Below are positions 13,037 through 28,810 of a DNA stretch of 39,247 nt, one piece after another. Numbering within the stretch: position 1 is the first letter of the stretch; every line of letters starts with the position of its first letter. The notes below the pieces were generated by a model. It saw nothing but the letters and a program-made list of their open reading frames with translations. It did no database searches and had not been told where the DNA came from. The stretch is from an uncultured Oscillospiraceae bacterium (GTDB lineage: Bacteria; Bacillota; Clostridia; Oscillospirales; Oscillospiraceae), in contig CANRIW010000017.1 of the NCBI GenBank assembly GCA_947630785.1, forward strand, positions 1-39,247. Direction: 5' to 3'. A program made the position numbers and the translations under genes.

Positions 13037-13065
13037 TTGCAATGTCAGACGGAAAACGATAAAAT
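13037..13065 (+). promoter_or_regulatory. Promoter of the MBL/HD-GYP/FecR/CHASE2 operon
   Basis: TTGCAA at 13037-13042, 17-bp spacer, TAAAAT at 13060-13065. Transcription would start near 13072 and run through seven closely spaced genes to 23452. I see no other strong promoter before those genes. Confidence 0.6.
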
Positions 13066-13093: not shown

Positions 13094-13906
13094 ATGGCGG
13101 TGGAAAAACTGAGATTTGAGCCGTGGGGCGTCCGCGGCTCTTTTCCCGTGGCGAAAGAGGGGTTCCTGTCCTACGGAGGCGATACCTCCTGCTTTTCGCT
13201 CCTGTGCGGGGACAGCCTTGCCGTATTTGACGCCGGCTCCGGTCTGACGGCCCTGGGGGAGAGGCTGGAGCGGGAGAGGGGCGTCAGGAGCGTCCATATC
13301 CTGCTGAGCCACGCCCACATCGACCATATCATGGGCCTGCCTCCCTTCCTGAGCGGCGCGGGGCGGGACAGGACGGTACACCTGTACGGCGGCGGGAGCA
13401 CCCTGGACGCTGTGGAGCGCCTGGCGGGCGAGCCGTACTGGCCATGCTCCCTCCGGGACAGCGGCGCCCGCCTGCACCGGGTGGACCCCGGCGCGCCCTT
13501 CCGGCTGGAGGGGGGAGAGGCCGGGGCGCGGCTCTCGTCCATGGAGGGGACCCATCCCGGCGGGTGCCTGTGGTACCGGCTGGAGTATGCGGGCCGGTCC
13601 GTCGTCTATTTTCTGGACTGTGAGATAGACCGGGAGCGGCGGCTGGAGATGATCCGGTTTGCCCGGAACGCCAGCCTGCTGGTCTGGGACGCCAGCTTCC
13701 CGCCCGGCCGGGAGAGGCCCGGATGGGGGCACTCCACCTGGGCCCAGGGGGCTGCCCTGGCCCGGGAGGCCGGGGCGGAACGGGTGCTCATGGCCCACTA
13801 CGCCCGCGACCTGGATGACCGCGCTCTGGAGCGCTTGGAGCGCGGCGCGGCCCAGGCGGGGGACGCCTGTATTTTCGCAAGAGAAGGGATGGAGATCAAG
13901 CTATGA
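13094..13906 (+). CDS. Metallo-beta-lactamase-fold hydrolase
   Basis: The 270-residue cytoplasmic protein has a complete dinuclear zinc site of the MBL fold: His73-Ala-His75-Ile-Asp77-His78, His154, Asp175 and His235. It has no signal peptide or extra domain. It resembles phosphodiesterase-like MBL proteins (RNase Z / PhnP / class II cyclic nucleotide phosphodiesterase superfamily) more than beta-lactamases. A substrate cannot be fixed from sequence. It is first in the signalling operon and overlaps the next gene by four bases (ATGA), so the two products are made together. The cyclase at the other end of the operon makes cyclic nucleotide hydrolysis a plausible role (inference). Start: GGGAGG about seven bases upstream. 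Confidence 0.8.
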   Translation: MAVEKLRFEPWGVRGSFPVAKEGFLSYGGDTSCFSLLCGDSLAVFDAGSGLTALGERLERERGVRSVHILLSHAHIDHIMGLPPFLSGAGRDRTVHLYGGGSTLDAVERLAGEPYWPCSLRDSGARLHRVDPGAPFRLEGGEAGARLSSMEGTHPGGCLWYRLEYAGRSVVYFLDCEIDRERRLEMIRFARNASLLVWDASFPPGRERPGWGHSTWAQGAALAREAGAERVLMAHYARDLDDRALERLERGAAQAGDACIFAREGMEIKL

Positions 13907-15345
13907 CGCAGCATGAGATCAAAAATATCCTGGAGATCGGCGTGATGCTGTCCTCCGAGCGGGATCTGGAGAAGCTTTTGGCCCGGGTGCTGGACTGCGT
14001 GATGGACCTGGCCCGGTGCGACGCCGGCACCCTCTATCTGCTGGAGGGGGATCACCTGGCGTTCAAACTCATGCGGAACCGCTCCCGGCAGCTCGGGACG
14101 CTGCCCCCGGTGCCGCTGGACCGGGAGCACGTGTGCGCCCTGTCCTTCCTGGACGGTCGGACCATCTCCATCGACGATGTGTACTTAAGCCGGGAGTGCG
14201 ATTTCAGCGGCACCCTCCGGTATGACGCCCTCACCGGCTACCGCACCCGCTCCATGCTGGTGGTGCCCATGATCGGCCGGCAGGGGGAGAAGCTGGGGGT
14301 GATCCAGCTCATCAACGCCCTGGACGACGGCGGCGCGGTGGCCCCCTTCCCGGCCGATATGACCCTGGTGCTGGAGTCAGCGGCCTCCCAGGCGGCCATC
14401 ACCATCCTGAACGCGCGGTACATCGAGGAGATCCGGGAGCTGTTCCACTCCTTCGTGCGGGTGATGTCCGCCGCCATCGGCGAGCTGACCCCCTACAACG
14501 CCAGCCACACCATGCACATGGCGGAGTACTGCGGCCGCTTTCTGGATTATCTGAACGAGAGCGCCGGGTATGAGCGGTTCGACGCCGACCGCCGGGAGGA
14601 GCTGCTCACCAGCGTATGGCTCCATGATGTGGGCAAGCTCATCACCCCTCTGGAGGTGATGAACAAGGCGGGACGGCTGCGCCCCGAGCAGCACGACGCC
14701 CTGTTCCACCGCCTGGAGGTCATCCGCCTGCGGGGGGAGATCGACCGGCTGAACGGCCGCATCACCCCGGAGGAACTGAGCGCCCTGGAAGAGGACACCT
14801 ATGCCGCCCAGCGGTTCATCGACGAGATCGACGCCGCCGATTTCCTGAGCGACGAGCGCCTGGCCCGGGTCGACGCGCTGGCGGAGCGCACCTATACCGC
14901 GGCGGACGGCTCCATTCGCCCCTGGCTGACGGAGGAGGAACACAAAATGCTGTCCATTCGGGGCGGTACCCTCTCCCCGGAGGAGCGGAAGATCATGGAG
15001 AAGCACGTGGTGTTCACCGACAAGCTGCTGTCTCAGATCCGTTTTTCGAGGAACCTTTCCCATGTGCGCCAGTGGGCGGCCAGCCATCATGAGCTGCTCA
15101 ACGGACAGGGCTATCCCGACCACCTCCGGGGCGACGCCATCCCCGAGGAAGTCCGCATCATCACCATCCTGGACGTCTTTGACGCGCTGGTGGCCTCCGA
15201 CCGGCCCTATAAGGAGGGCAAGCCGGTGCCGGCGGCCCTGGCCATTCTGAAGGATATGGCCGCCCAGGGCAGGTTGGACAGCGAACTGTTGGAGCAATTT
15301 ACCGCCAGCCGGTGCTGGGAGACGGAGGAGGAAAACGCGCAATGA
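13903..15345 (+). CDS. GAF domain / HD-GYP phosphodiesterase-type protein
   Basis: The 480-residue soluble protein has an N-terminal GAF sensor domain (about 5-165) and a C-terminal HD-GYP domain. Visible metal-site residues are His202/His205, His241-Asp242-Val-Gly-Lys, His368, His395-His396-Glu, the N-G-Q-G-Y-P box (403-405), and Asp424 in L-D-V-F-D-A-L. Spacing after His368 matches canonical HD-GYP enzymes, which open cyclic-di-GMP or cGAMP. Between Asp242 and His368 it carries about 90 extra, mostly helical, acidic residues. It overlaps the MBL gene upstream and the first FecR gene downstream by ATGA. No GGDEF protein is present, so whether it acts on c-di-GMP or another nucleotide is open. 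Confidence 0.87.
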   Translation: MTQHEIKNILEIGVMLSSERDLEKLLARVLDCVMDLARCDAGTLYLLEGDHLAFKLMRNRSRQLGTLPPVPLDREHVCALSFLDGRTISIDDVYLSRECDFSGTLRYDALTGYRTRSMLVVPMIGRQGEKLGVIQLINALDDGGAVAPFPADMTLVLESAASQAAITILNARYIEEIRELFHSFVRVMSAAIGELTPYNASHTMHMAEYCGRFLDYLNESAGYERFDADRREELLTSVWLHDVGKLITPLEVMNKAGRLRPEQHDALFHRLEVIRLRGEIDRLNGRITPEELSALEEDTYAAQRFIDEIDAADFLSDERLARVDALAERTYTAADGSIRPWLTEEEHKMLSIRGGTLSPEERKIMEKHVVFTDKLLSQIRFSRNLSHVRQWAASHHELLNGQGYPDHLRGDAIPEEVRIITILDVFDALVASDRPYKEGKPVPAALAILKDMAAQGRLDSELLEQFTASRCWETEEENAQ

Positions 15346-16718
15346 GACGTTTCGACCGAAAACGGATGATCTCCCTGGCTCTGGCGGCCTGCCTGCTGCT
15401 GTCCTGCGCCGCCTGCGGCGGGGAGGGCGAGGCCCGGGCCGCCAGTATGTGGCTGGTAAAGACCGAGGGCACGGTCTCCGTCACCGACGGTGAGGGCGGG
15501 GACGTGTCCCTGCTGGACCGGCTGGGCCTGTTCAGCGGGTACGGGGTGGCCACTCAGGCCGCCAGCTTTGGGTGGATCGACCTGGACGACACCAAGCTCA
15601 CCAAGATGGACGAGAACAGCGGCGTCACCGTCCAAAAGGACGGGAAACACCTGGAGCTGACGGTGGATCGTGGCTCCCTGTTCTTCAACGTCACCAGACC
15701 CCTGGGGAACGACGAATCATTTGAAATCCGCTCCTCCACCATGGTCACCGCCATCCGGGGCACCTGCGGCTGGGTGGAGGTCCCCGACGCGGAGCACATG
15801 AACGTCTACATCCTGGAGGGCACGGTGGAGTGCTCGGTGGGGGACGTGACCGAGTCCGTTACCGCAGGCCAGACCGCCGCCATCGACGCCCAGGCGGGTG
15901 CCATATCGGTGAAGGACTTCACCGAGAACGACATCCCGGCCTTTGTCGCCGCCGAGGTGGAGGAGGACCCGGACCTGGCTGACGCTATCCAGGACGCCTC
16001 CGGGCTGGACATGGAGAGCGGCCTGAGGCAGCCGGGACGCAACGCCTACGGGGCCACGACCTTTGAGCAGAGGGAGGACTATATCCCCTTTGAGGAGCTG
16101 CCCGCGGAGAAGCAGACCATGATACAAGAAGGTCTCCAGGCCAACACCGCCGAGGACCGGTCTCATCTGGCTGAGCTGTGTGCAGCATGCCAGCAGGAGA
16201 CAAATTCCCAGTTCTTTACTGCCTGGGACGAATATAAGGTCTATGTTCTCATTGACCATATGAACGGGGACCCGATGAACGGGGACCCGCGGCTGACAAT
16301 GGAGTTTCGCCCTGAAAATGGAATGGGATATGCGTCAAATACAGTTGTATCCGAAACAAGTTCCGGCAGCAGCCTTTATCAGTGCCCCTGTGAAAATTGG
16401 CAATGGAACGGTGAGATGATGGCCACAGATAAGGATGTAGCTTCTTCCGGATCCGCGACCGAAATAACGACCACGGGACAGTTTGTGGACGGCCTCCGCC
16501 AGGGTACCTTTCACAAGGAAGTCGTCATGACCGTAAACGGAGAGACCAGAACAAGAACCGGTGAGGGCACTTTCACAGACGGGCGTGGGATTATTATCCG
16601 TACGGACGATGCGCTTGGCGATTCCACCATATACGCCTGGGGCATCATCTTCAACTTGGGCGAGGCCCCCGAGGGGGAGCCCCTGACGCAATATCAGCTG
16701 GATATGCTCTACTGGTGA
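15342..16718 (+). CDS. FecR-domain lipoprotein, copy A
   Basis: The 458-residue protein begins with a basic N-terminus and hydrophobic segment ending L-L-S-C, a lipobox, so it should be anchored on the outer face of the membrane. Residues about 33-168 form a FecR domain (W-L-V-K-T-E-G-T-V-S-V near its start; S-S-T-M-V-T-A-I-R-G-T-C-G in the core). FecR domains act as extracytoplasmic sensors or regulators. After a conserved A-I-Q-D-A-S-G-L-D hinge there is a unique C-terminal domain with a W-Q-W-N-G and V-D-G-L-R-Q-G-T-F pattern, faintly like MORN repeats. A 15-bp tandem repeat at 16260-16289 adds a second M-N-G-D-P. The start at 15342 overlaps the HD-GYP stop; a start at 15312 lacks a signal peptide fit. 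Confidence 0.85.
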   Translation: MRRFDRKRMISLALAACLLLSCAACGGEGEARAASMWLVKTEGTVSVTDGEGGDVSLLDRLGLFSGYGVATQAASFGWIDLDDTKLTKMDENSGVTVQKDGKHLELTVDRGSLFFNVTRPLGNDESFEIRSSTMVTAIRGTCGWVEVPDAEHMNVYILEGTVECSVGDVTESVTAGQTAAIDAQAGAISVKDFTENDIPAFVAAEVEEDPDLADAIQDASGLDMESGLRQPGRNAYGATTFEQREDYIPFEELPAEKQTMIQEGLQANTAEDRSHLAELCAACQQETNSQFFTAWDEYKVYVLIDHMNGDPMNGDPRLTMEFRPENGMGYASNTVVSETSSGSSLYQCPCENWQWNGEMMATDKDVASSGSATEITTTGQFVDGLRQGTFHKEVVMTVNGETRTRTGEGTFTDGRGIIIRTDDALGDSTIYAWGIIFNLGEAPEGEPLTQYQLDMLYW

Positions 16719-16731
16719 GGAGGAATAGGCG

Positions 16732-18768
16732 ATGAAAAAACTGAAACGGATCTTATCCCTGGCCCTGGCGGCCTGCCTGCTGCTGTCCTGCGCCGCCTGC
16801 GGCGGGGAGGGCGAGGCCCGGGCCGCCAGCATGTGGCTGGTGAAGACCGAGGGCACGGTCTCCGTCACCGACGGGGAGGGCGGGGACGTGTCCCTGCTGG
16901 ACCGGCTGGGCCTGTTCAGCGGGTACGGCGTGGCCACCCAGGCTGCCAGCTTCGGGTGGATCGACCTGGGCGACACCAAGCTCACCAAGATGGACGAGAA
17001 CAGCGGCGTCACCGTCCAAAAGGACGGAAAACACCTGGAGCTGACGGTGGACCGGGGCGCTCTGTTCTTCAACGTCACCAGGCCCCTGGGGGACGACGAA
17101 TCGTTTGAAATCCGCTCCTCCACCATGGTCACCGCCATCCGGGGGACCTGCGGCTGGGTGGAGGTCCCCGACGCGGACCATATGAACGTCTATATCCTGG
17201 AGGGCACGGTGGAGTGCTCGGTGGGGGACGCGAAGGTGCCCGTCACCGCCGGCCAGACCGCCGCCATTCGCGCCGGGGAGAGCAGTATCACTGTGGATAC
17301 CTTCTTCGCCTGCAGTATCCCCGCCTTTGTCAGGGCCGAGGTGGAAGACGACGAGGAACTGGCCGCCGCCATCCTGGACGCCTCCGGGCTGGACGTGCTG
17401 GGCGGCGGAGACATTCAGACCGCGCTGGAGGGGATGGGCTACATCGGCGACCCCGCCGCCTCTACCATGACGCCGGAGCAGGCCGCCAGGCTGGGCGAGA
17501 CTCTGCAGCGGCTGGTGGCCGAGTCAGAGGCCGAGTATGTGACCGGCTCCGGGCAGGTCCCTGGCGGCGAGTTCCACTGCTACGCCGCCCTCTTTGACGC
17601 GGGGGACGGCTCCCCCGCCGTGGCATTCCTGAACAACGGGGAACTCTCCTACGACGCCATCATGGGCCGCGGCTACCCCGACTACTCCGGCATCATCGTG
17701 CTGCACTTCCAGGACGGGCAGCTGGTCCGTATGCCCAACGAGGGACTCGATGGGCTGGACTTGTCCGACCACTATGCCGTGTTCTTCGGCTATATGGCCC
17801 CGGACGGCTCGGCCAGCGACATCAGCCAGGAATGGGTCTACGACCTGACGGCCGGCGGCATCCACGGCCCGATCGTCTCCCAGGTCACCTATGACGAATA
17901 CGGCCCCGGCGGCATCACCATCGACGGCGTCCCCGCCACCCAGGAGCAGTATTCCGCCTGGGCGGGGCAGTGGCCCCATTCCGGAACCGGATTTAGTATC
18001 GGCAACGGCGGCTTCGGCAGTGCCACCGGCGCGCAGGACGCCTCCGAACTGGCCGCCGCCCTTTTAGCCGCCTCCGGGCTGGACGTATCGGATCCGGGCC
18101 CCGCCGGGGACCCGGCCCTGCTGTCCGGCGTGTACTTCGGGGACCCCACTTCCTGCACCATGACGGCGGACCAGGCGGCGGCCCTTGCCGCCGCCTTGCG
18201 CAGCAAGATGGAAAAGGTGGAGCAGGACTTCGCCGAGAGCCGCTATAAGGATCCCAGCTCCGACGGCCCGCGTTCCTTTGCCGCCCTCTTCGACGCCGGA
18301 AACGGCGCGCCCGCGATGATCTTTGCCGGCGGACAGCACCTGCCGATCAGTTTTGAGGGAGAGGTGCAGATGATCTCTCCGTATACCTTTGGCATATGGC
18401 ATTTCCCCGGTGGGGAGCTGGCGGAGTTCACCGATTTTGACATGGCCGCCGTCCACGACGGCTGGATCCTGGTCAACGGCATGTGGCCGGACGGGAGCGG
18501 CTATGACGGCGCCGCTCTGCCCCTCAACGGCTTTATCGACGCCGACGCGCCGCTGGCCAGCGCCCACTCCAACTACTATGACGGCCCCGCGCCTGTGTTC
18601 CAGATCGATGGCGCGGACGTGTCTGGGAGCGATTTCGACGCCTGGACCGCCCGGTGGGACGGCGACGCCCAGGTGGGTGTCAGCCACGGAAGCGACATCG
18701 GCGCCCAGTGCTGGGGCATGGCCCCGGCGGAGGACGTGCTGGCGGCCCTGGATGCCTGGGCGGGATAA
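16732..18768 (+). CDS. FecR-domain lipoprotein, copy B, with duplicated C-terminal domain
   Basis: The 678-residue paralogue has the same lipobox and an almost identical FecR domain, but a different and longer C-terminus. That part is an internal duplication: about 209-425 and 438-660 align, both with a D-A-S-G-L-D / A-A-S-G-L-D hinge, an S/C-T-M-T-x-x-Q-A-A motif, and A-A-L-F-D-A-G-D/N-G. I recognise no known domain in the repeats. It follows copy A by 13 bases with the site GAGGAGGAATAGGCG before its ATG, the same leader found before copy D. It is probably surface-exposed and reads a different ligand or partner from its neighbours (inference). Confidence 0.82.
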   Translation: MKKLKRILSLALAACLLLSCAACGGEGEARAASMWLVKTEGTVSVTDGEGGDVSLLDRLGLFSGYGVATQAASFGWIDLGDTKLTKMDENSGVTVQKDGKHLELTVDRGALFFNVTRPLGDDESFEIRSSTMVTAIRGTCGWVEVPDADHMNVYILEGTVECSVGDAKVPVTAGQTAAIRAGESSITVDTFFACSIPAFVRAEVEDDEELAAAILDASGLDVLGGGDIQTALEGMGYIGDPAASTMTPEQAARLGETLQRLVAESEAEYVTGSGQVPGGEFHCYAALFDAGDGSPAVAFLNNGELSYDAIMGRGYPDYSGIIVLHFQDGQLVRMPNEGLDGLDLSDHYAVFFGYMAPDGSASDISQEWVYDLTAGGIHGPIVSQVTYDEYGPGGITIDGVPATQEQYSAWAGQWPHSGTGFSIGNGGFGSATGAQDASELAAALLAASGLDVSDPGPAGDPALLSGVYFGDPTSCTMTADQAAALAAALRSKMEKVEQDFAESRYKDPSSDGPRSFAALFDAGNGAPAMIFAGGQHLPISFEGEVQMISPYTFGIWHFPGGELAEFTDFDMAAVHDGWILVNGMWPDGSGYDGAALPLNGFIDADAPLASAHSNYYDGPAPVFQIDGADVSGSDFDAWTARWDGDAQVGVSHGSDIGAQCWGMAPAEDVLAALDAWAG

Positions 18769-18792
18769 ACAGTTGGGAGAGGAGCGGATGAG

Positions 18793-20178
18793 ATGAAATG
18801 CCTGAAACATACAGCCGCTCTGCTGTTGGCGGCGGCCCTGCTGCTGTCCTGCGCCGCCTGCGGCGGGGAGGGCGAGGCCCGGGCCGCCAGCATGTGGCTG
18901 GTGAAGACCGAGGGCACGGTCTCCGTCACCGACGGGGAGGGCGGGGACGTGTCCCTGCTGGACCGGCTGGGCCTGTTCAGCGGGTACGGCGTGGCCACCC
19001 AGGCTGCCAGCTTCGGGTGGATCGACCTGGGCGACACCAAGCTCACCAAGATGGACGAGAACAGCGGCGTCACCGTCCAAAAGGACGGAAAACACCTGGA
19101 GCTGACGGTGGACCGGGGCGCTCTGTTCTTCAACGTCACCAGGCCCCTGGGGGACGACGAATCGTTTGAAATCCGTTCCTCCACCATGGTCACCGCCATC
19201 CGGGGGACCTGCGGCTGGGTGGAGGTCCCCGACGAGGACCATATGAACGTCTACATCCTGGAGGGCACGGTGGAGTGCTCGGTGGGGGAGGTGACCGAGT
19301 CCGTTACCGCAGGCCAGACCGCCGCTATCGACGCCGGGACGGGCGCCATATCGGTGAAGGACTTCACCGAGAACGACATCCCGGCCTTTGTCGCCGCCGA
19401 GGTGGAGGAGGACCCGGACCTGGCTGACGCCATCCAGGACGCCTCCGGGCTGGACATGGAGAGCGGCCTGAGGCGGCCGGACCTGAACGCTTATGGCGCC
19501 ACGGTCTTTGAACAGCGGGAGAACTATATCGATTTTGACCAGCTGCCCCCAGTATATCAGGCCATCATACAGGATGCGTTCGAGCACCTCGCCGATGTGG
19601 AGACCCATAATTTGACAGAAATGTGCTCGACGTTAGACAGAACGTGGAACTTCTTTACCACATGGAACGATTACAAGGTCTATTTCAGCTCTGAGCTGGG
19701 TTTTGACGGCCAGGAGTCCAGCCGGCTGGTAGTGGAGTTCCGGCCCGAAAACGGAATGGGATATGTGCTGGCCCCTGTCAGGACGCCCGGCGGCAACATC
19801 GGCAGTAACTATTCGTGCCCCTGCGAGGGGTGGCAGTGGAACGGAGATATGACGGGCCGCGACGACGAGACCATCCGGGAGAATGGAAGACCGGCGGCTG
19901 AAACGCATTTGGGGACGGAAGGACAGCTTGTGGACGGCCTCCGTCAAGGCGCCTTCCGCACAGTCGGATTAAGCGTCAAAGATGCCGGCGACGGATCGTT
20001 CGACCAGGAGAGGATCGACACGGAGAACGTCTTCACAGACGGACGGGGTGTTGATTACCGGGACGGTATGACCGATCAGGCCTCCGGCGTATACCTCTGG
20101 GGCATCGTGCTGAACCTGGGGGAGGCACCCGCGGGCGGGCCCCTGACGCAGTACCAGCTGGATATGCTCTACTGGTGA
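18793..20178 (+). CDS. FecR-domain lipoprotein, copy C
   Basis: The 461-residue paralogue is closest to copy A in both the hinge (D-F-T-E-N-D-I-P-A-F-V-A-A-E-V) and the C-terminal domain (C-E-G-W-Q-W-N-G; V-D-G-L-R-Q-G-A-F; ending Q-Y-Q-L-D-M-L-Y-W). Its FecR domain DNA, however, is almost identical to copies B and D, which points to gene conversion. Signal peptide and L-L-S-C lipobox are intact although the first residues (M-K-C-L-K-H-T) differ. The start at 18793 has GAGAGGAG upstream, 24 bases after copy B. Confidence 0.83.
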   Translation: MKCLKHTAALLLAAALLLSCAACGGEGEARAASMWLVKTEGTVSVTDGEGGDVSLLDRLGLFSGYGVATQAASFGWIDLGDTKLTKMDENSGVTVQKDGKHLELTVDRGALFFNVTRPLGDDESFEIRSSTMVTAIRGTCGWVEVPDEDHMNVYILEGTVECSVGEVTESVTAGQTAAIDAGTGAISVKDFTENDIPAFVAAEVEEDPDLADAIQDASGLDMESGLRRPDLNAYGATVFEQRENYIDFDQLPPVYQAIIQDAFEHLADVETHNLTEMCSTLDRTWNFFTTWNDYKVYFSSELGFDGQESSRLVVEFRPENGMGYVLAPVRTPGGNIGSNYSCPCEGWQWNGDMTGRDDETIRENGRPAAETHLGTEGQLVDGLRQGAFRTVGLSVKDAGDGSFDQERIDTENVFTDGRGVDYRDGMTDQASGVYLWGIVLNLGEAPAGGPLTQYQLDMLYW

Positions 20179-20191
20179 GGAGGAATAGGCG

Positions 20192-21619
20192 ATGAACGAG
20201 CTGAAACGGATTGTATCCCTGACCCTGGCGGCCTGCCTGCTGCTGCCCTGCGCCGCCTGCGGCGGCCCGGACGGGCCCGCAGCCACCCCCGGCCAGATAG
20301 GCCAGGGCGGCACGGCGGAGGCCGCCAGCATGTGGCTGGTGAAGACCGAGGGCACGGTCTCCGTCACCGACGGGGAGGGCGGGGACGTGTCCCTGCTGGA
20401 CCGGCTGGGCCTGTTCAGCGGGTACGGCGTGGCCACCCAGGCTGCCAGCTTCGGGTGGATCGACCTGGGCGACACCAAGCTCACCAAGATGGACGAGAAC
20501 AGCGGCGTCACCGTCCAAAAGGACGGAAAACACCTGGAGCTGACGGTGGACCGGGGCGCTCTGTTCTTCAACGTCACCAGGCCCCTGGGGGACGACGAAT
20601 CGTTTGAAATCCGTTCCTCCACCATGGTCACCGCCATCCGGGGCACCTGCGGCTGGGTGGAGGTCCCCGACCCGGACCATATGAACGTCTACATCCTGGA
20701 GGGCACGGTGGAGTGCTCGGTGGGGGACGTGACCGAGTCCGTTACCGCAGGGGAGAAGGCGTTCCTGTCCAGAGTGGATGGGGAGGGCGCCATTGTGAAG
20801 GCGGCATTTGACCGGACAAACGTGCCCGATTTCGTTGCGGTCGAGGCCGCCGGGGACGGCGATTTGAAAAATGCCATTTTGGATGCCTCCGGGGTGGACG
20901 TGTCAGCCCTGCGCTACGGCGTCGAGGTCACGCCCTTTGCGCAGCGGTTTGAATATCAGGACTTTACAGCCCTGCCCCCGGAGACCCAGGAGCTGCTCCG
21001 GAGTACAGCGGCGGCCATTTCGGCCCACGATGACGGGACGCTGGAGGAACTGCTGACCTTTGAAAACCTTGCCCCCTGCAAAGTCGAGGGCTGGAGCGAC
21101 AACCAGATCGTATTCTATACAGAGTTCGACAGCCAGAAGCTCCGAGTCGAGTTGACACAGATCCTCTATACAGATGGCTCCGCTCCGGAGGAGCATCTCG
21201 AGCGGGTCGTGGAGTACCGCCCGAAGAACGGCCCCGGCTGCTTCTATTATGACGAGGACTGGTACCATATCGACGCATCCCTGAATCGGACGGGGTATTA
21301 TGCCGGCTGGCTTGTTTGGGGGGACTGCCTCTGTGTGGACTGGCAGTTTGAGGGAGACGCTGTCCTGTCATTTTTGCGCTACCCGATATACAGCAACACA
21401 GTCGCTCATTCGGGAGCGCTGAAGGGGCGGATCGTCCACAACCTGCGGGAGGGCGCCTGGACCTTCGAGGGCGACCCCGACAGCAGTCTCAGCGGCATTT
21501 TCAATGGGAACAGCGATGACACCTACGAAAAAGGAGTCGGAACGGTGGGCACCCCCTACGAGGGTGCTGCTTACGGCATTCGGCCATTGGTATGGGAGAA
21601 GGCCGCGATGTACTGGTGA
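20192..21619 (+). CDS. FecR-domain lipoprotein, copy D
   Basis: The 475-residue paralogue has a lipobox L-L-P-C and a distinctive Gly/Pro-rich linker of about 20 residues before the FecR domain. Its FecR domain is nearly identical to B and C. The C-terminal domain is a diverged relative of those in A and C: V-E-Y-R-P-K-N-G, V-D-W-Q-F-E-G and N-L-R-E-G-A-W occupy matching positions. The hinge A-I-L-D-A-S-G-V-D is kept. The leader before it repeats that of copy B, and it lies 13 bases after copy C and 30 bases before the CHASE2 cyclase. It may be the FecR protein closest in function to the cyclase, but that is only positional inference. Confidence 0.82.
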   Translation: MNELKRIVSLTLAACLLLPCAACGGPDGPAATPGQIGQGGTAEAASMWLVKTEGTVSVTDGEGGDVSLLDRLGLFSGYGVATQAASFGWIDLGDTKLTKMDENSGVTVQKDGKHLELTVDRGALFFNVTRPLGDDESFEIRSSTMVTAIRGTCGWVEVPDPDHMNVYILEGTVECSVGDVTESVTAGEKAFLSRVDGEGAIVKAAFDRTNVPDFVAVEAAGDGDLKNAILDASGVDVSALRYGVEVTPFAQRFEYQDFTALPPETQELLRSTAAAISAHDDGTLEELLTFENLAPCKVEGWSDNQIVFYTEFDSQKLRVELTQILYTDGSAPEEHLERVVEYRPKNGPGCFYYDEDWYHIDASLNRTGYYAGWLVWGDCLCVDWQFEGDAVLSFLRYPIYSNTVAHSGALKGRIVHNLREGAWTFEGDPDSSLSGIFNGNSDDTYEKGVGTVGTPYEGAAYGIRPLVWEKAAMYW

Positions 21620-21649
21620 CCCATCTGATTGGGAAGGAAGTGAACCGCC

Positions 21650-23452
21650 ATGAGAAAAAAGCTTCTGCCTCCGCTGGCCGCTCTGGCCGCCGCCCTGCTG
21701 CTGACCCTTCTGGCGGGGCTGGGCGCTCTGGACCGGCCGGATCAGGCGGCGGCTGACCTGCTCTACCAGCGGGAACGGTTCTCCGAGGGAAATATCGTCC
21801 TGGTGGGCATCGACCAGAGGGCGCTGGAGGAACTGGGCCCCTACAGTCAATGGAGCCGGGACGTCTTTGCCCGAGCGGTGGAGGCGCTGAACGCCTCGGA
21901 GGAGGACCGCCCGGCGGTCATCGGCCTGGACGTGCTTTTTACCGGCGAGACCGCCCCGGAGACGGACGCGGCCCTGGCGGAGGCCGCCGGCCGGTACGGC
22001 AACGTGGTCACCGCCTCGTCGGCGAAATTCGGCGGCGACCCGCTGTCCGACGGGAACGGGGACTATTATCTGGACGGCTTCTCCCCCCTGGCCTATGACG
22101 AGCCCTATGAGGCCCTGCGGGACGTCACCGTCCAGGGCCACGTCAACGCCATGATGGACGGCGACGGCATCATACGCCACGGCCTGCTCAGCCTGACCCT
22201 GTCCGACGGGCGGCGGGTGCCCTCCTTCGCCCTGGCCGTCGCCCAAAAATACGCGGAGGCAAAGGGCCTGCCGGAGCCAGAGCCGCCTCAGACCGACCGG
22301 CGGGGGTTCTGGTATCTGCCTTTCGTAAGGCTGCCGGGGGACTACAGCGAGAACATCTCCATCGCCGACCTGCTGGACGGCTCGGTCCCCATGGATCACT
22401 TTCGGGGGAAGATCGTCCTCATCGGCCCCTATGCCGCCGGCCTGGGGGACAGCTACACTACCGCCATCGACCACGCGAAGCCCATGTACGGGGTGGAGGT
22501 CCAGGCCAACGCCGCCGAGGCCATCCTTCTGGCAGACTATCCCCGGGAGGCAAAGGACGCCCCCCAGCTGGCCGCCCTTTTTGCCCTTCTGCTGCTGGCC
22601 TTCTTCCTGTTCTGGAAACGGCACGCGGCGCTCTCCACCGCCGCCCTGGCGGTATTGGCAGGGGGTTGGCTGGGCCTCTGCCTCCTGATGAGGGAGCGGG
22701 GGCTGCTCCTGCGGGTGCTGTGGGTGCCGGTGGGAGCCGCCATCCTCTATCTGGGCTGCCTGGCGGTCAACTATATCCAATCGGTGCTGGAGACCCGCCG
22801 GGTGACGGCCACTTTCCAGCGCTACGTGGCCCCGGAGATCGTCCGCGAGCTGCTGAAGACCCCCGACGCCTTGAAGCTCACCGGGAAGACCGCCGAGATC
22901 GCGGTGCTGTTCGTGGACGTGCGGGGTTTCACCTCCATGTCGGAGGTGCTCTCCCCCACCGAGGTGGTGGCTATCTTGAATCGCTACCTGACCCTGATCT
23001 CCGACTGCATCCTGAAACACGGCGGCACCTTGGACAAATTCGTGGGGGACGCGGCCATGGCCTTTTGGGGCGCGCCGCTGCCCTGTGATGACGCCGTGCT
23101 GGAGGCCGCCCGGGCAGCCGTGGATATGATCGAGGGCTCCAGGGCTCTGTCGGATCAGCTGACGGCGGAATTCGGCCGGACGGTGTCCTTCGGAATCGGC
23201 ATCCACACAGGCGAGGCCGTGGTGGGCAACGTGGGTTCCCCCAAGCGGATGGACTACACCGCCATCGGCGACACGGTGAACACCGCCGCCCGGCTGGAGG
23301 CCAACGCCCCCGGCGGGACCATCTACATCTCCCGGGCTGTGGCCGATGCCCTGGGGGACCGGGCCAGGGTGACATCCCTGGGGGATTCGGTGCCGCTGAA
23401 GGGCAAGCAGGCCGGTTTCGAGGTGCTGGTCCTGGAAGGGCTGATGAAATGA
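21650..23452 (+). CDS. CHASE2-domain class III adenylate/guanylate cyclase
   Basis: The 600-residue protein has one N-terminal membrane helix (about 7-27), an extracytoplasmic CHASE2 sensor domain (about 30-310), three further membrane helices (about 305-380), and a class III cyclase catalytic domain (about 410-590). The catalytic residues look intact: metal Asp423 (V-D-V-R-G-F-T) and Asp467, Lys463, Thr537 at the second purine-contact position, Asn544 and Arg548. Lys plus Thr fits a class IIIb adenylyl cyclase, so cAMP is the expected product (established for the class; not tested here). It closes the operon, 30 bases after copy D, with GGAAGGAAG before the ATG. The CHASE2 domain and the FecR lipoproteins face the same side of the membrane, which suggests they interact. 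Confidence 0.92.
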   Translation: MRKKLLPPLAALAAALLLTLLAGLGALDRPDQAAADLLYQRERFSEGNIVLVGIDQRALEELGPYSQWSRDVFARAVEALNASEEDRPAVIGLDVLFTGETAPETDAALAEAAGRYGNVVTASSAKFGGDPLSDGNGDYYLDGFSPLAYDEPYEALRDVTVQGHVNAMMDGDGIIRHGLLSLTLSDGRRVPSFALAVAQKYAEAKGLPEPEPPQTDRRGFWYLPFVRLPGDYSENISIADLLDGSVPMDHFRGKIVLIGPYAAGLGDSYTTAIDHAKPMYGVEVQANAAEAILLADYPREAKDAPQLAALFALLLLAFFLFWKRHAALSTAALAVLAGGWLGLCLLMRERGLLLRVLWVPVGAAILYLGCLAVNYIQSVLETRRVTATFQRYVAPEIVRELLKTPDALKLTGKTAEIAVLFVDVRGFTSMSEVLSPTEVVAILNRYLTLISDCILKHGGTLDKFVGDAAMAFWGAPLPCDDAVLEAARAAVDMIEGSRALSDQLTAEFGRTVSFGIGIHTGEAVVGNVGSPKRMDYTAIGDTVNTAARLEANAPGGTIYISRAVADALGDRARVTSLGDSVPLKGKQAGFEVLVLEGLMK

Positions 23453-26985: not shown

Positions 26986-28734
26986 TCACGGACGGGTGTA
27001 CTCCCTGAGAGAGGAGAACAGCACCGTATTGTTCTCCGCGAACAGCTGGATGGTCTTGCCGCTGGCCCCGTAGAGCCGGACGGTGAGGGCGGCCTGGCCG
27101 TCGATGTAGAACACGCCCGCCGAGCCCTCCTGGATGTAGGTGAAGGAGTAGTCCGTATTGGGCTCCAGATCCACCGCCGTCTCGGTGATGAGGGTGCCGC
27201 CCTCGTTGAACTGGAGCTGCACCTTGTCCTCCGCGGGGACCAGGGCGATGAACTTGTTTTTGTCGTCCCGGCCGTTGTAGTCGAAGCTGAGGCCGAAGGA
27301 GCCCTCGCCGGTATAGCGGAACTCGCCGGTGAGCTTGAAGCTCTCATAGCAGGTGAAGGCGTCGGCGTAGGCGTAGACCGAGCCGGACTCCACGGAGACG
27401 TGGGTGTCCTCCGCCGCCAGCGCCCGCCGGACCGAGAAGGCGTCCTCCACGGCGTCCACCGGGGCCAGGGCCAGGGTGCCGTCCTCGTTTTGGATCAGCT
27501 TTTGGACGGCCAGATTGCCCGCCCAGCCGGACACGTCCTGGGTGGAGGAGGGGGACTCGGACCGCCGGGCCCAGCCCACCATGTAACAGTTCTCGCCGTC
27601 CTCCACGTGCTTGGCGGCGTAGAACAGCTTGCCGTCCAGCCGCACGGGGTCCCCGTAGGGGCCGTAGGGAGTATCGGACACGGCGTACCAGAGGGTGTCG
27701 TCCTGGGCGGAGTAGGTGATATAGTACTTGCCGCCCATCTCAAAGGTGTCGCTGCACTCCAGGTTCCAGAAGTCGCCGTTTTTGGCCTCGTCGTTGGTGA
27801 AGATGACCCCGTCGTAGTGCCTGTTCGCCAGATCGGGGCTGAGGGTATATTTCAGGATGCGCGCCACCCCGCCCTGGGAGGCGGTGACGGTGAGGACGAT
27901 GTTCCCGCTCCCGTCCACATATCCCTGGGGGTCCCGGAAGTCGTTTTTCTGGCCCAGCTCGGAGGGGGGCGTGATCTCCCAGCCCTCCAGCTTCTCGAAA
28001 GCGGTGGGGGTATCGCCCACGGCCACCATGATCTTCTCGGCGTACTCCAGGATGTTCCCGTCGCCGTGACCAGTATAGAAGAAGTAGTACTTCCCGTCAA
28101 CCTTCACCACGGAGCCGGTGCCGATCCAGCTGTCCTGGCCGCCGGAGCGGTTGGCCTCCAGCACCGGGTCGTCGTACTCGGTGTAGGTGAGGAAGTCGGT
28201 AGTAGTGGCCAGATAGACCGAGTGGTTGTAGGAGTCGCCGGCCTCTTTCAGGTAGTAGATGTAATAGGTCCCGTCCTCATAGTAGGGCATGGTGTCGCCC
28301 ACATAGGGCTGGCTGGTGCCGTCCGCCTCCGGGAGGAAGAAGGTGGTGTAGTCGTATGCCTCCTCCTGGCTGCCGGGGGTGCGGAGGGAGGAGAAGTCCT
28401 TGTCGTTGCCGGGGTCGGTGATCGCGTCCCCGGTGTCCTTATCCCAGCCGGCGTAGAGGGTCATATCGGCCTTGACCTTGTCCTTGCCCGCGTCCCAGGG
28501 CTGGGTGAGGCCGGCGTCCTGGAACCAGCCCAGGAAGGTGTAGCCCTCCCGGACGGGGGCCTCGGGGGCGGTGACGGTCTTGCCGGAGGACACCGTCTGA
28601 CTTGGGATGGTCAGGTCGGCGTCGGAGTTGTCGTCGAAGGTCACCGTGTACTCCGCGGTGGGGCCGCATCCGCACAGCAGGGCGCTGAGGAGCAGGCACA
28701 GGGCGGTGAGCCCCGCGATGATGGTTCGTCTCAT
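26986..28734 (-). CDS. Surface lipoprotein GH32 enzyme with Flg_new/InlB-type repeat domain
   Basis: The 582-residue protein has a signal peptide ending L-L-C-G-C (lipidated Cys23). A Listeria-Bacteroides type repeat (Flg_new, about 28-97, with G-Y-T-F-L-G-W-F and L-Y-A-G-W) follows, then a GH32 five-bladed propeller and a C-terminal beta-sandwich. Likely catalytic residues are Asp147 (V-G-D-T-M-P), Asp268 in F-R-D-P and Glu326 in L-E-C-S. The usual W-M-N-D-P-N-G box is replaced by a diverged form, typical of exo- or endo-fructanase-like GH32 branches. It probably trims inulin or levan at the cell surface. The start at 28734 has GGGAGG nine bases upstream. Confidence 0.85.
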   Translation of the reverse strand: MRRTIIAGLTALCLLLSALLCGCGPTAEYTVTFDDNSDADLTIPSQTVSSGKTVTAPEAPVREGYTFLGWFQDAGLTQPWDAGKDKVKADMTLYAGWDKDTGDAITDPGNDKDFSSLRTPGSQEEAYDYTTFFLPEADGTSQPYVGDTMPYYEDGTYYIYYLKEAGDSYNHSVYLATTTDFLTYTEYDDPVLEANRSGGQDSWIGTGSVVKVDGKYYFFYTGHGDGNILEYAEKIMVAVGDTPTAFEKLEGWEITPPSELGQKNDFRDPQGYVDGSGNIVLTVTASQGGVARILKYTLSPDLANRHYDGVIFTNDEAKNGDFWNLECSDTFEMGGKYYITYSAQDDTLWYAVSDTPYGPYGDPVRLDGKLFYAAKHVEDGENCYMVGWARRSESPSSTQDVSGWAGNLAVQKLIQNEDGTLALAPVDAVEDAFSVRRALAAEDTHVSVESGSVYAYADAFTCYESFKLTGEFRYTGEGSFGLSFDYNGRDDKNKFIALVPAEDKVQLQFNEGGTLITETAVDLEPNTDYSFTYIQEGSAGVFYIDGQAALTVRLYGASGKTIQLFAENNTVLFSSLREYTRP

Positions 28735-28778
28735 GTTAGCTAACCTCCCTATGTCGTTGAGCGCGTCCGCAGTACGCT

Positions 28779-28810
28779 TGCAGAGGGGATACCCAGGCAT
28801 CCCCTCTGCA
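28779..28810. repeat. Perfect hairpin between two lipoprotein genes of the fructan operon
   Basis: TGCAGAGGGGAT (28779-28790) and its exact complement (28799-28810) enclose an 8-base loop. There is no T-run on the minus strand, so it is more likely an mRNA-stabilising or processing element than a terminator. Confidence 0.6.

What the first reader, a model, noticed from the sequence alone, without database searches (positions are those of the whole stretch)
13094..23452. Seven-gene envelope-sensing nucleotide signalling operon: MBL hydrolase, GAF/HD-GYP, four FecR lipoproteins, CHASE2 cyclase
One promoter and 4-base overlaps or short gaps tie together a class III cyclase with an extracytoplasmic CHASE2 sensor, four surface lipoproteins with FecR sensor domains, and two intact hydrolase-type cytoplasmic proteins. 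FecR proteins normally control TonB-linked sigma factors in Gram-negatives; here there is no sigma factor or receptor. Inference: the FecR lipoproteins present ligand or envelope signals to CHASE2, which sets cyclic nucleotide synthesis, while the HD-GYP and MBL proteins degrade or tune it. The combination with a four-fold FecR array may be undescribed.
Basis: partly seen in the sequence, partly recalled or inferred. Interest (0 to 1): 0.87.

Follow-up and report, generated by a model that had tools for sequence, protein, structure and literature searches.

The report
Surface lipoprotein array feeding cAMP sensor
A gut Clostridia genome carries a seven-gene signalling operon in which four near-copies of a surface protein, each with a different outer end, appear to feed one membrane enzyme predicted to make cyclic AMP; versions of this gene set recur in many relatives.

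Summary
In detail: seven intact + strand genes at 13094-23452 encode MBL hydrolase, GAF/HD-GYP, four FecR proteins and CHASE2-cyclase. The neighbourhood recurs: of 69 unique related cyclase loci with at least 5 kb upstream, 54 have FecR, 46 MBL, 40 HD-GYP. FecR and CHASE2 co-occur genome-wide: FecR in 26 of 28 CHASE2+ against 1 of 32 CHASE2- family genomes. The four FecR blocks are 94-99% identical in DNA, cluster by genome, and carry divergent tails, two of which clearly keep orthology. That fits one shared partner with several antennae. Cyclase residues predict cAMP. I read GAF/HD-GYP as the receiver rather than an eraser: its GAF resembles cyclic-nucleotide GAF domains, one relative fuses CHASE2 directly to HD-GYP, and GGDEF proteins take its place elsewhere. 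Oddly, no GGDEF or EAL domain was found in six genomes of the genus, so the HD-GYP substrate is unknown. FecR/CHASE2-cyclase clusters are in print for Campylobacterota and FecR/CHASE2-kinase for Burkholderiales, so this is a new variant. Nothing was measured in the laboratory.

The parts
13094..13906 (+). MBL-fold metallohydrolase (RNase Z/PhnP-like), proposed cyclic-nucleotide phosphodiesterase
   Evidence: Pfam Lactamase_B_2 64.9 bits; HxHxDH and further His/Asp columns invariant in 12 aligned proteins, window included; PDB relatives include RNase Z
13903..15345 (+). GAF/HD-GYP protein, proposed cyclic-nucleotide receiver with phosphohydrolase output
   Evidence: GAF + HD_5; H202, HD, HHE and GYP columns invariant in 10 aligned proteins, window included; GAF hits CyaB2 1ykd and PmGH 4mcw; HD-GYP hits 5z7c and 4mcw
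15342..16718 (+). FecR1 lipoprotein (block 15432-15947, variable tail after it)
   Evidence: Pfam FecR; block position; lipobox pattern
16732..18768 (+). FecR2 lipoprotein (block 16816-17328) with two tails in tandem
   Evidence: Pfam FecR; second tail 90% and first tail 35% identical to the tail of one G285 FecR protein
18793..20178 (+). FecR3 lipoprotein (block 18877-19392)
   Evidence: Pfam FecR; tail 88.6% identical to a G285 tail
20192..21619 (+). FecR4 surface protein (block 20315-20836); lipobox pattern not matched
   Evidence: Pfam FecR; N-terminal hydrophobic segment; no lipobox match; tail without a close G285 counterpart
21650..23452 (+). CHASE2 class III cyclase: N-terminal hydrophobic segment, CHASE2 (21692-22597), further hydrophobic segments, cyclase domain (about 22889-23410)
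   Evidence: CHASE2 156 bits, Guanylate_cyc 88 bits; hydrophobic segments at residues 3-29, 302-348, 351-376; D423, D467, K463, N544, R548 invariant and D535 at least 90% in 15 aligned proteins, window included
13037..13065 (+). promoter-like site upstream of the operon (weak, 9 of 12)
   Evidence: consensus scan only

Best explanation
The operon is one surface-to-second-messenger circuit. Four extracytoplasmic FecR proteins share a near-identical FecR block close to the membrane anchor and differ in their outer tails. The tails meet different envelope or external signals; the shared block acts on the extracytoplasmic CHASE2 domain of the single cyclase. The cyclase makes cAMP. The GAF domain of GAF/HD-GYP reads the cAMP and switches the HD-GYP phosphohydrolase; the MBL protein removes cAMP. 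Shown by sequence: gene set, recurrence, association of FecR with CHASE2, FecR blocks that cluster by genome while at least two tails keep orthology, catalytic residues present. Inferred: physical FecR-CHASE2 contact, direction (FecR as input), cAMP as product, GAF as receptor, MBL as cAMP phosphodiesterase. Unknown: the signals and the HD-GYP substrate, since no GGDEF or EAL domain was found in this genus.
For: Gene set in 69 assessable loci: FecR 54, MBL 46, HD-GYP 40, GGDEF 20, cyclase alone 3. FecR profile in 26 of 28 CHASE2+ genomes against 1 of 32 CHASE2- (Fisher 1.4e-13, kinship not corrected). FecR blocks split by genome with 100/99 support, while FecR3 and the second FecR2 tail pair with G285 tails at 89-90%; block more alike than tail in 31 of 31 paralogue pairs of 12 loci. 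Cyclase aligns with P. aeruginosa CyaB at the Lys and Asp recalled as adenylate-type. GAF alone: best whole-chain PDB hit CyaB2 1ykd, E 2e-14, two GAF domains summed. CHASE2-HD-GYP fusion 12 bases after the stop of an ORF with a FecR match in G176. In chains without the GAF/HD-GYP gene: cNMP-GGDEF, GAF-GGDEF or MBL-GAF-GGDEF. The operon-type GAF/HD-GYP (over 600 bits) in 20 of 28 CHASE2+ and 0 of 32 CHASE2- genomes. Parallels: PMC9239204; NsrA-dependent CHASE2-cyclase signalling in S. meliloti (PMC7529298, PMC13001267); cAMP-sensing EAL enzyme Bd1971 (PMC6717892).
Against: No GGDEF in G000 and five genus-mates by two searches and no EAL, so a c-di-GMP output makes no obvious sense here. By single domain the GAF scores slightly better against PmGH (35.1 bits), whose structure paper describes a c-di-GMP phosphodiesterase, than against CyaB2 (32.7 bits), and it lacks the Lys of the NKFDE signature (motif recalled). 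15 of 69 loci have no FecR gene in the chain; 3 of 20 GGDEF chains also have HD-GYP. Two of the 26 FecR-positive genomes (G008, G028) rest on weak matches, E about 2e-5. The MBL scores higher with RNase Z models (63.6 bits, cut-off 315) than with the cyclic-nucleotide phosphodiesterase model (24.5 bits, cut-off 400). FecR1 tail is only 60% like its nearest G285 tail and FecR4 tail has no close counterpart there. Tails could be effectors rather than sensors.
Confidence: 0.5

Rival explanations
1. FecR proteins are outputs, not inputs: surface or wall-binding adhesins co-expressed with a CHASE2 cyclase that senses its own signal and controls them.
For: Some FecR tails in relatives carry surface modules: LRR_5, Big_2, Flg_new, SLH/NHL, RCC1, Cna_B/SpaA; weak NCBIfam similarity, far below cut-off, to Leptospira adhesins Lsa33 and Lsa19.
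Against: The part that clusters by genome is the FecR block near the membrane anchor, not the tail. FecR genes also stand beside CHASE2 receptors with other outputs: histidine kinase (PMC5192318) and HD-GYP.
Confidence: 0.27
2. HD-GYP and MBL both remove or tune the cyclase product; the cAMP receiver is a CRP-like regulator elsewhere in the genome.
For: G000 has two cNMP-binding proteins; the one scanned is CRP/FNR-like, below curated cut-offs. HD-GYP persists where no GGDEF is found.
Against: cNMP-binding proteins occur in 28 of 28 CHASE2+ and 29 of 32 CHASE2- genomes, so they do not follow the operon. 17 of 20 chains with GGDEF have no operon-type HD-GYP, and a GGDEF synthase would be an odd stand-in for a cAMP eraser.
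Confidence: 0.17
3. The four FecR genes are recent tandem duplicates without functional meaning; near-identity of the blocks is mere recency, and block above tail is ordinary domain constraint.
For: Blocks share exact runs of up to 339 bases. A domain is expected to be more conserved than a linker-rich tail, so alone does not show homogenisation. For the FecR1 pair the tail dS (0.73) exceeds the block dS (0.37). FecR blocks of L121, L122 and L129 group by position, not by genome.
Against: FecR3 tail is 88.6% identical to a G285 tail but 52.5% to FecR1, while its block sides with the other window blocks; for this pair block dS is 0.39 against tail dS 0.19.
Confidence: 0.06

Closest known systems
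Campylobacterota cluster of CHASE2 adenylate cyclase, cAMP phosphodiesterase, FecR outer-membrane protein and TPR protein (PMC9239204, one section read)
   Same: CHASE2 cyclase clustered with FecR and phosphodiesterase genes; the four genes listed include no sigma factor
   Different: Here Clostridia with no TonB receptor found, four FecR genes with divergent tails, a GAF/HD-GYP protein, no TPR match among the operon genes
BiofilmReg operon of Burkholderiales: LysM-FecR protein with CHASE2 histidine kinase (PMC5192318, passages and outline read)
   Same: Extracytoplasmic FecR protein encoded 10 bases from a CHASE2 receptor; extra wall-binding module
   Different: Output is a two-component system; one FecR gene
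Sinorhizobium meliloti CyaD1, CyaD2 and CyaK cyclases with NsrA (PMC7529298 and PMC13001267, passages read)
   Same: A separate surface protein is required for CHASE2-cyclase cAMP signalling; a FecR gene lies next to cyaD1 on the opposite strand
   Different: NsrA is a predicted outer-membrane beta-barrel; the receiver is the CRP-type regulator Clr
FecI/FecR/FecA cell-surface signalling (recalled; outlined in PMC9239204)
   Same: FecR domain in an extracytoplasmic protein
   Different: No sigma factor in the operon, no TonB receptor found, no second membrane segment or anti-sigma part matched
Bd1971, cAMP-sensing EAL c-di-GMP phosphodiesterase (PMC6717892, abstract and outline read)
   Same: cAMP controls a cyclic-dinucleotide phosphodiesterase
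   Different: cNMP-type sensor and EAL enzyme instead of GAF and HD-GYP

Membership tests
FecI/FecR/FecA sigma-regulating FecR | cytoplasmic anti-sigma N-terminus followed by a membrane span (recalled) | tested here: not met
   Only the FecR domain matched in Pfam; a single hydrophobic segment at the very N-terminus, lipobox in 3 of 4
FecI/FecR/FecA sigma-regulating FecR | sigma factor beside it and a TonB receptor | tested here: not met
   None among the seven operon genes or 18 other window proteins scanned, three of which had no match (not every window ORF was scanned); PF00593 in 0 of 6 genus genomes. Sigma factors elsewhere in the genome were not searched
FecR domain (PF04773) | profile match over curated cut-off | tested here: met
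   33-35 bits against 24 for all four
CHASE2 receptor | CHASE2 domain between membrane segments | tested here: met
   156 bits; hydrophobic segments on both sides
Class III adenylate cyclase | two metal Asp, substrate Lys and Asp, transition-state Asn and Arg (roles recalled) | tested here: met
   activity not measured
HD-GYP phosphodiesterase | HD, HHE and GYP motifs | tested here: met
   Invariant in 10 aligned proteins; aligned to 4mcw and 5z7c
HD-GYP acting on c-di-GMP made in the same cell | a GGDEF synthase in the genome | tested here: not met
   No GGDEF in G000 and five genus-mates by two searches and no EAL; six-frame searches here can miss weak members, as one search shows for FecR
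cAMP-binding GAF | binds cAMP; NKFDE-like signature (recalled) | tested here: inconclusive
   Whole-chain best hit 1ykd, single-domain best hit 4mcw; signature only partly present
MBL cyclic-nucleotide phosphodiesterase | curated family match or activity | tested here: inconclusive
   Metal motif present; NF041851 24.5 bits against cut-off 400; RNase Z models score higher but also below cut-off

The most novel reading that the evidence does not exclude
The FecR domain is a general extracytoplasmic adaptor for CHASE2 receptors, independent of sigma factors, and some Clostridia have built it into a constant/variable array: one homogenised docking block, several swappable antennae, one shared receptor whose output (cyclase, kinase, HD-GYP) is interchangeable. 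In this genus the circuit ends in an HD-GYP enzyme whose substrate is not c-di-GMP.
Probability: 0.35. Interest if true: 0.8.

Novelty: new variant of a known kind. Interest (0 to 1): 0.6.

Why it matters
The factors that CHASE2 domains recognise were called unknown in 2016 (PMC5192318), and FecR is usually taken as a sigma-factor regulator. If the FecR block is the CHASE2 partner, signal entry can be tested with a defined pair of proteins, and the tails tell where to look for ligands. The HD-GYP in a genus without a detectable c-di-GMP synthase offers a clean test for another substrate.

Tried and rejected
PF04773 in the genome search missed the four known FecR genes of G000, so its negatives were set aside and the search repeated with a profile of 31 operon FecR domains; that profile favours FecR proteins of the operon kind. 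CRP-like proteins as the cAMP reader: present with and without the operon, so uninformative. Classical FecR signalling: rejected (see membership test). FecR profile against PDB sequences: no hit up to E 1. Plasmid collection: of eight regions chosen and opened, two had no annotation; of the other six, five have a FecR gene beside the cyclase (Shinella, S. meliloti, Phyllobacterium, Methylosinus, and Methyloprofundus), two of them on the opposite strand, and Gemmobacter has none. Class-wide sample: FecR in 16 of 20 fetched CHASE2 loci from 18 genomes, 15 of them within about 3.1 kb, one of these on the opposite strand (distances read from its coordinates); it overlaps the other set, since at least L167 and L170 lie on contigs of the same length as those of L137 and L121.

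Rows dropped before counts: 6 duplicate loci and 2 without a cyclase call, one of which (L053) holds the CHASE2-HD-GYP fusion; then 31 of 100 unique loci with under 5 kb upstream. The chain rule (same strand, within 7 kb, gaps under 1.8 kb) cuts long arrays, so MBL and HD-GYP of L038 and L048, seen, are not counted. The 32 CHASE2- genomes are 32 of the 272 without a match: four genus-mates and 28 taken in handle order, not at random. Enzyme alignments A1-A3 hold chosen members, not all that were fetched.
Full report
WHAT IS THERE. Seven intact genes lie on the + strand at 13094-23452: an MBL-fold hydrolase, a GAF/HD-GYP protein, four FecR proteins and a CHASE2 class III cyclase, all over Pfam cut-offs. 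Two junctions are 4-base overlaps, the other four are gaps of 13-30 bases. The nearest genes on both sides are minus-strand sugar-use genes (GH2 family before, PfkB kinase after). The window lies in a 2.17 Mb assembly of 72 contigs, 98.5% complete. I infer its family to be GTDB Oscillospiraceae, because contigs of family members have the same lengths as named records such as JAAWHG010000008.1, 71,452 bases; no tool stated it.

RECURRENCE. CHASE2 occurs in 28 of 300 family genomes sampled and 19 of 391 class genomes, the window's own genome counted in both, so it is patchy. Where it occurs the gene set recurs. 28 fetched stretches and 80 named loci gave 100 unique cyclase loci, the window not among them. 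Of the 69 with at least 5 kb upstream, the same-strand chain holds FecR in 54, MBL in 46, HD-GYP in 40, GGDEF in 20 and cNMP in 2, and the cyclase stands alone in 3. FecR copies per chain were 0 in 15, 1 in 43, 2 in 4 and 3 in 7. A class-wide sample not chosen by similarity to this cyclase gave FecR in 16 of 20 loci, with some overlap with the first set.

FECR GOES WITH CHASE2. A profile of 31 operon FecR domains found FecR in 26 of 28 CHASE2+ genomes and 1 of 32 CHASE2- genomes (Fisher p 1.4e-13, not corrected for kinship; the 32 were not a random draw). Two of the 26, G008 and G028, rest on weak matches; the two misses are G086 and G267, and the one CHASE2- genome with FecR is G030. Among the six sampled genomes of the window's genus, the two with CHASE2 have FecR and the four without have none. 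Of 52 FecR matches, 31 lie on the cyclase contig, one of those about 200 kb away in G071. Six genomes carry FecR only on other contigs or far away: G122, G175, G056, G071, G190 and G057; for G057 and G190, whose cyclase contigs are under 7 kb, this may be a contig break. In five of six annotated Pseudomonadota plasmid regions opened, a FecR gene is beside the cyclase.

CONSTANT BLOCK, VARIABLE TAILS. The FecR block (429 bases) is 93.7-98.8% identical among the four window copies and 87.4-89.3% identical to the three copies of genus-mate G285; a DNA tree splits the blocks by genome with 100/99 support. In the wider protein tree the window copies form one group (89/98) but the G285 copies do not. 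Tails tell another story for two genes: FecR3 tail is 88.6% identical to one G285 tail but 52.5% to FecR1, and the second tail of FecR2 is 90% identical to another G285 tail. FecR1 tail is 60% like its nearest G285 tail, and FecR4 tail has no close counterpart (29% at best in G285). Block dS is 0.39 and 0.37 in two pairs; tail dS is 0.19 for FecR3 but 0.73 for FecR1. I read this as homogenisation of the block within each genome. In 12 multi-FecR loci the domain is more alike than the tail in all 31 paralogue pairs, one of which had no alignable tail; ordinary constraint on a domain would also give that. Blocks group by locus in most of the 12, but by position in L121, L122 and L129, and L134 does not form one group. 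Some tails of relatives carry LRR_5, Big_2, Flg_new, RCC1, SLH/NHL or Cna_B/SpaA modules; the window tails match nothing in Pfam. Of 76 FecR proteins scanned, 67 matched PF04773; the other 9 had been found by the session profile.

THE ENZYMES. Cyclase: D423, D467, K463, N544 and R548 are invariant and D535 at least 90% conserved in 15 aligned proteins, and the Lys and Asp align with P. aeruginosa CyaB; with residue roles recalled, this predicts cAMP. HD-GYP: H202, HD, HHE and GYP columns are invariant in 10 aligned proteins, and the DRPYK stretch aligns with PmGH. The operon type (over 600 bits) is in 20 of 28 CHASE2+ and 0 of 32 CHASE2- genomes. dN/dS between G000 and G285 is 0.34 for HD-GYP, 0.27 for MBL and 0.23 for the cyclase, one pair of genomes only. 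MBL: HxHxDH and other His/Asp columns are invariant in 12 aligned proteins; its PDB relatives include RNase Z.

WIRING. For the GAF domain alone the best whole-chain PDB hit is the tandem GAF of cyanobacterial cyclase CyaB2, 1ykd (E 2e-14), ahead of PmGH (5e-8) and PDE5 (1e-6). That lead comes from summing two GAF domains: by single domain PmGH scores 35.1 bits and CyaB2 32.7. That 1ykd binds cAMP is recalled. In chains without the GAF/HD-GYP gene other receiver-plus-dinucleotide enzymes appear: a cNMP-GGDEF protein (L030), GAF-GGDEF (L091, L128), or an MBL-GAF-GGDEF protein next to the cyclase (L121; L168 and L169, where the GAF match is below cut-off). 17 of 20 GGDEF chains lack HD-GYP, 3 have both. 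In G176 the CHASE2 domain is fused to an HD-GYP that matches the operon profile with 410 bits, and the gene starts 12 bases after the stop of a 1342-residue ORF that holds the FecR match. Together these place HD-GYP or GGDEF downstream of FecR/CHASE2. They do not prove cAMP binding.

A PUZZLE. Neither PF00990 nor a profile of six GGDEF domains (with hits in four other family genomes) finds GGDEF in G000 or its five genus-mates, and PF00563 finds no EAL. The two genomes with the operon each have one match to the HD-GYP profile, the one in the operon. Diadenylate cyclase is found in 6 of 6. So either a weak GGDEF was missed, or this HD-GYP acts on something other than c-di-GMP.

LITERATURE. Nine searches of the held open-licence library: FecR + CHASE2 (3 papers), with adenylate cyclase (2), any two of 'FecR domain', adenylate cyclase, CHASE (536, 15 listed), CHASE2 + Clostridia (2, neither about this by title and abstract), any two of NsrA, CHASE2, Sinorhizobium (11), HD-GYP + adenylate cyclase + FecR (1), 'FecR domain' + surface + Firmicutes (0), any three of HD-GYP, GAF domain, cAMP, PmGH (40, 12 listed), FecR + adenylate cyclase + operon (9, listing only). 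PMC9239204: section 9 read and passages; it reports Campylobacterota clusters of CHASE2 cyclase, cAMP phosphodiesterase, FecR and TPR. PMC5192318: passages and outline. PMC5498481, PMC13001267, PMC7529298, PMC4159591: passages. PMC6717892: abstract and outline. Nothing that I read describes the Clostridia form, the arrays or their concerted evolution; subscription papers are mostly not held.

VERDICT. A real, recurring signalling operon of a partly known kind, with an array feature and a GGDEF-free setting that I did not find in print in those searches. Functional link of FecR and CHASE2: about 0.85. Whole circuit as described: 0.5. The FecR genes share exact repeats of up to 339 bases in a 72-contig assembly, so the copy number should be checked with long reads; the three-copy array in G285 supports the array being real.

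Noticed in passing
window genus: G000 and five genus-mates: No GGDEF or EAL domain found in any of six genomes, yet two carry an HD-GYP, inside this operon only.
   Followed up: partly
window 16732-18768: FecR2 has two tails in tandem, apparently a fusion or duplication; the second resembles the tail of a single-tail protein in G285.
   Followed up: partly
L053:13006-15063: CHASE2 fused directly to HD-GYP, right after an ORF that carries a FecR match.
   Followed up: yes
L152 (Shinella plasmid): FecR and cyclase genes are followed by NHLP bacteriocin-export genes and a cyclic-nucleotide-binding protein gene.
   Followed up: no
window 26986-28800: GH32-like hydrolase with a Listeria-Bacteroides repeat, within a minus-strand cluster of sugar-use and ABC importer genes.
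   Followed up: no
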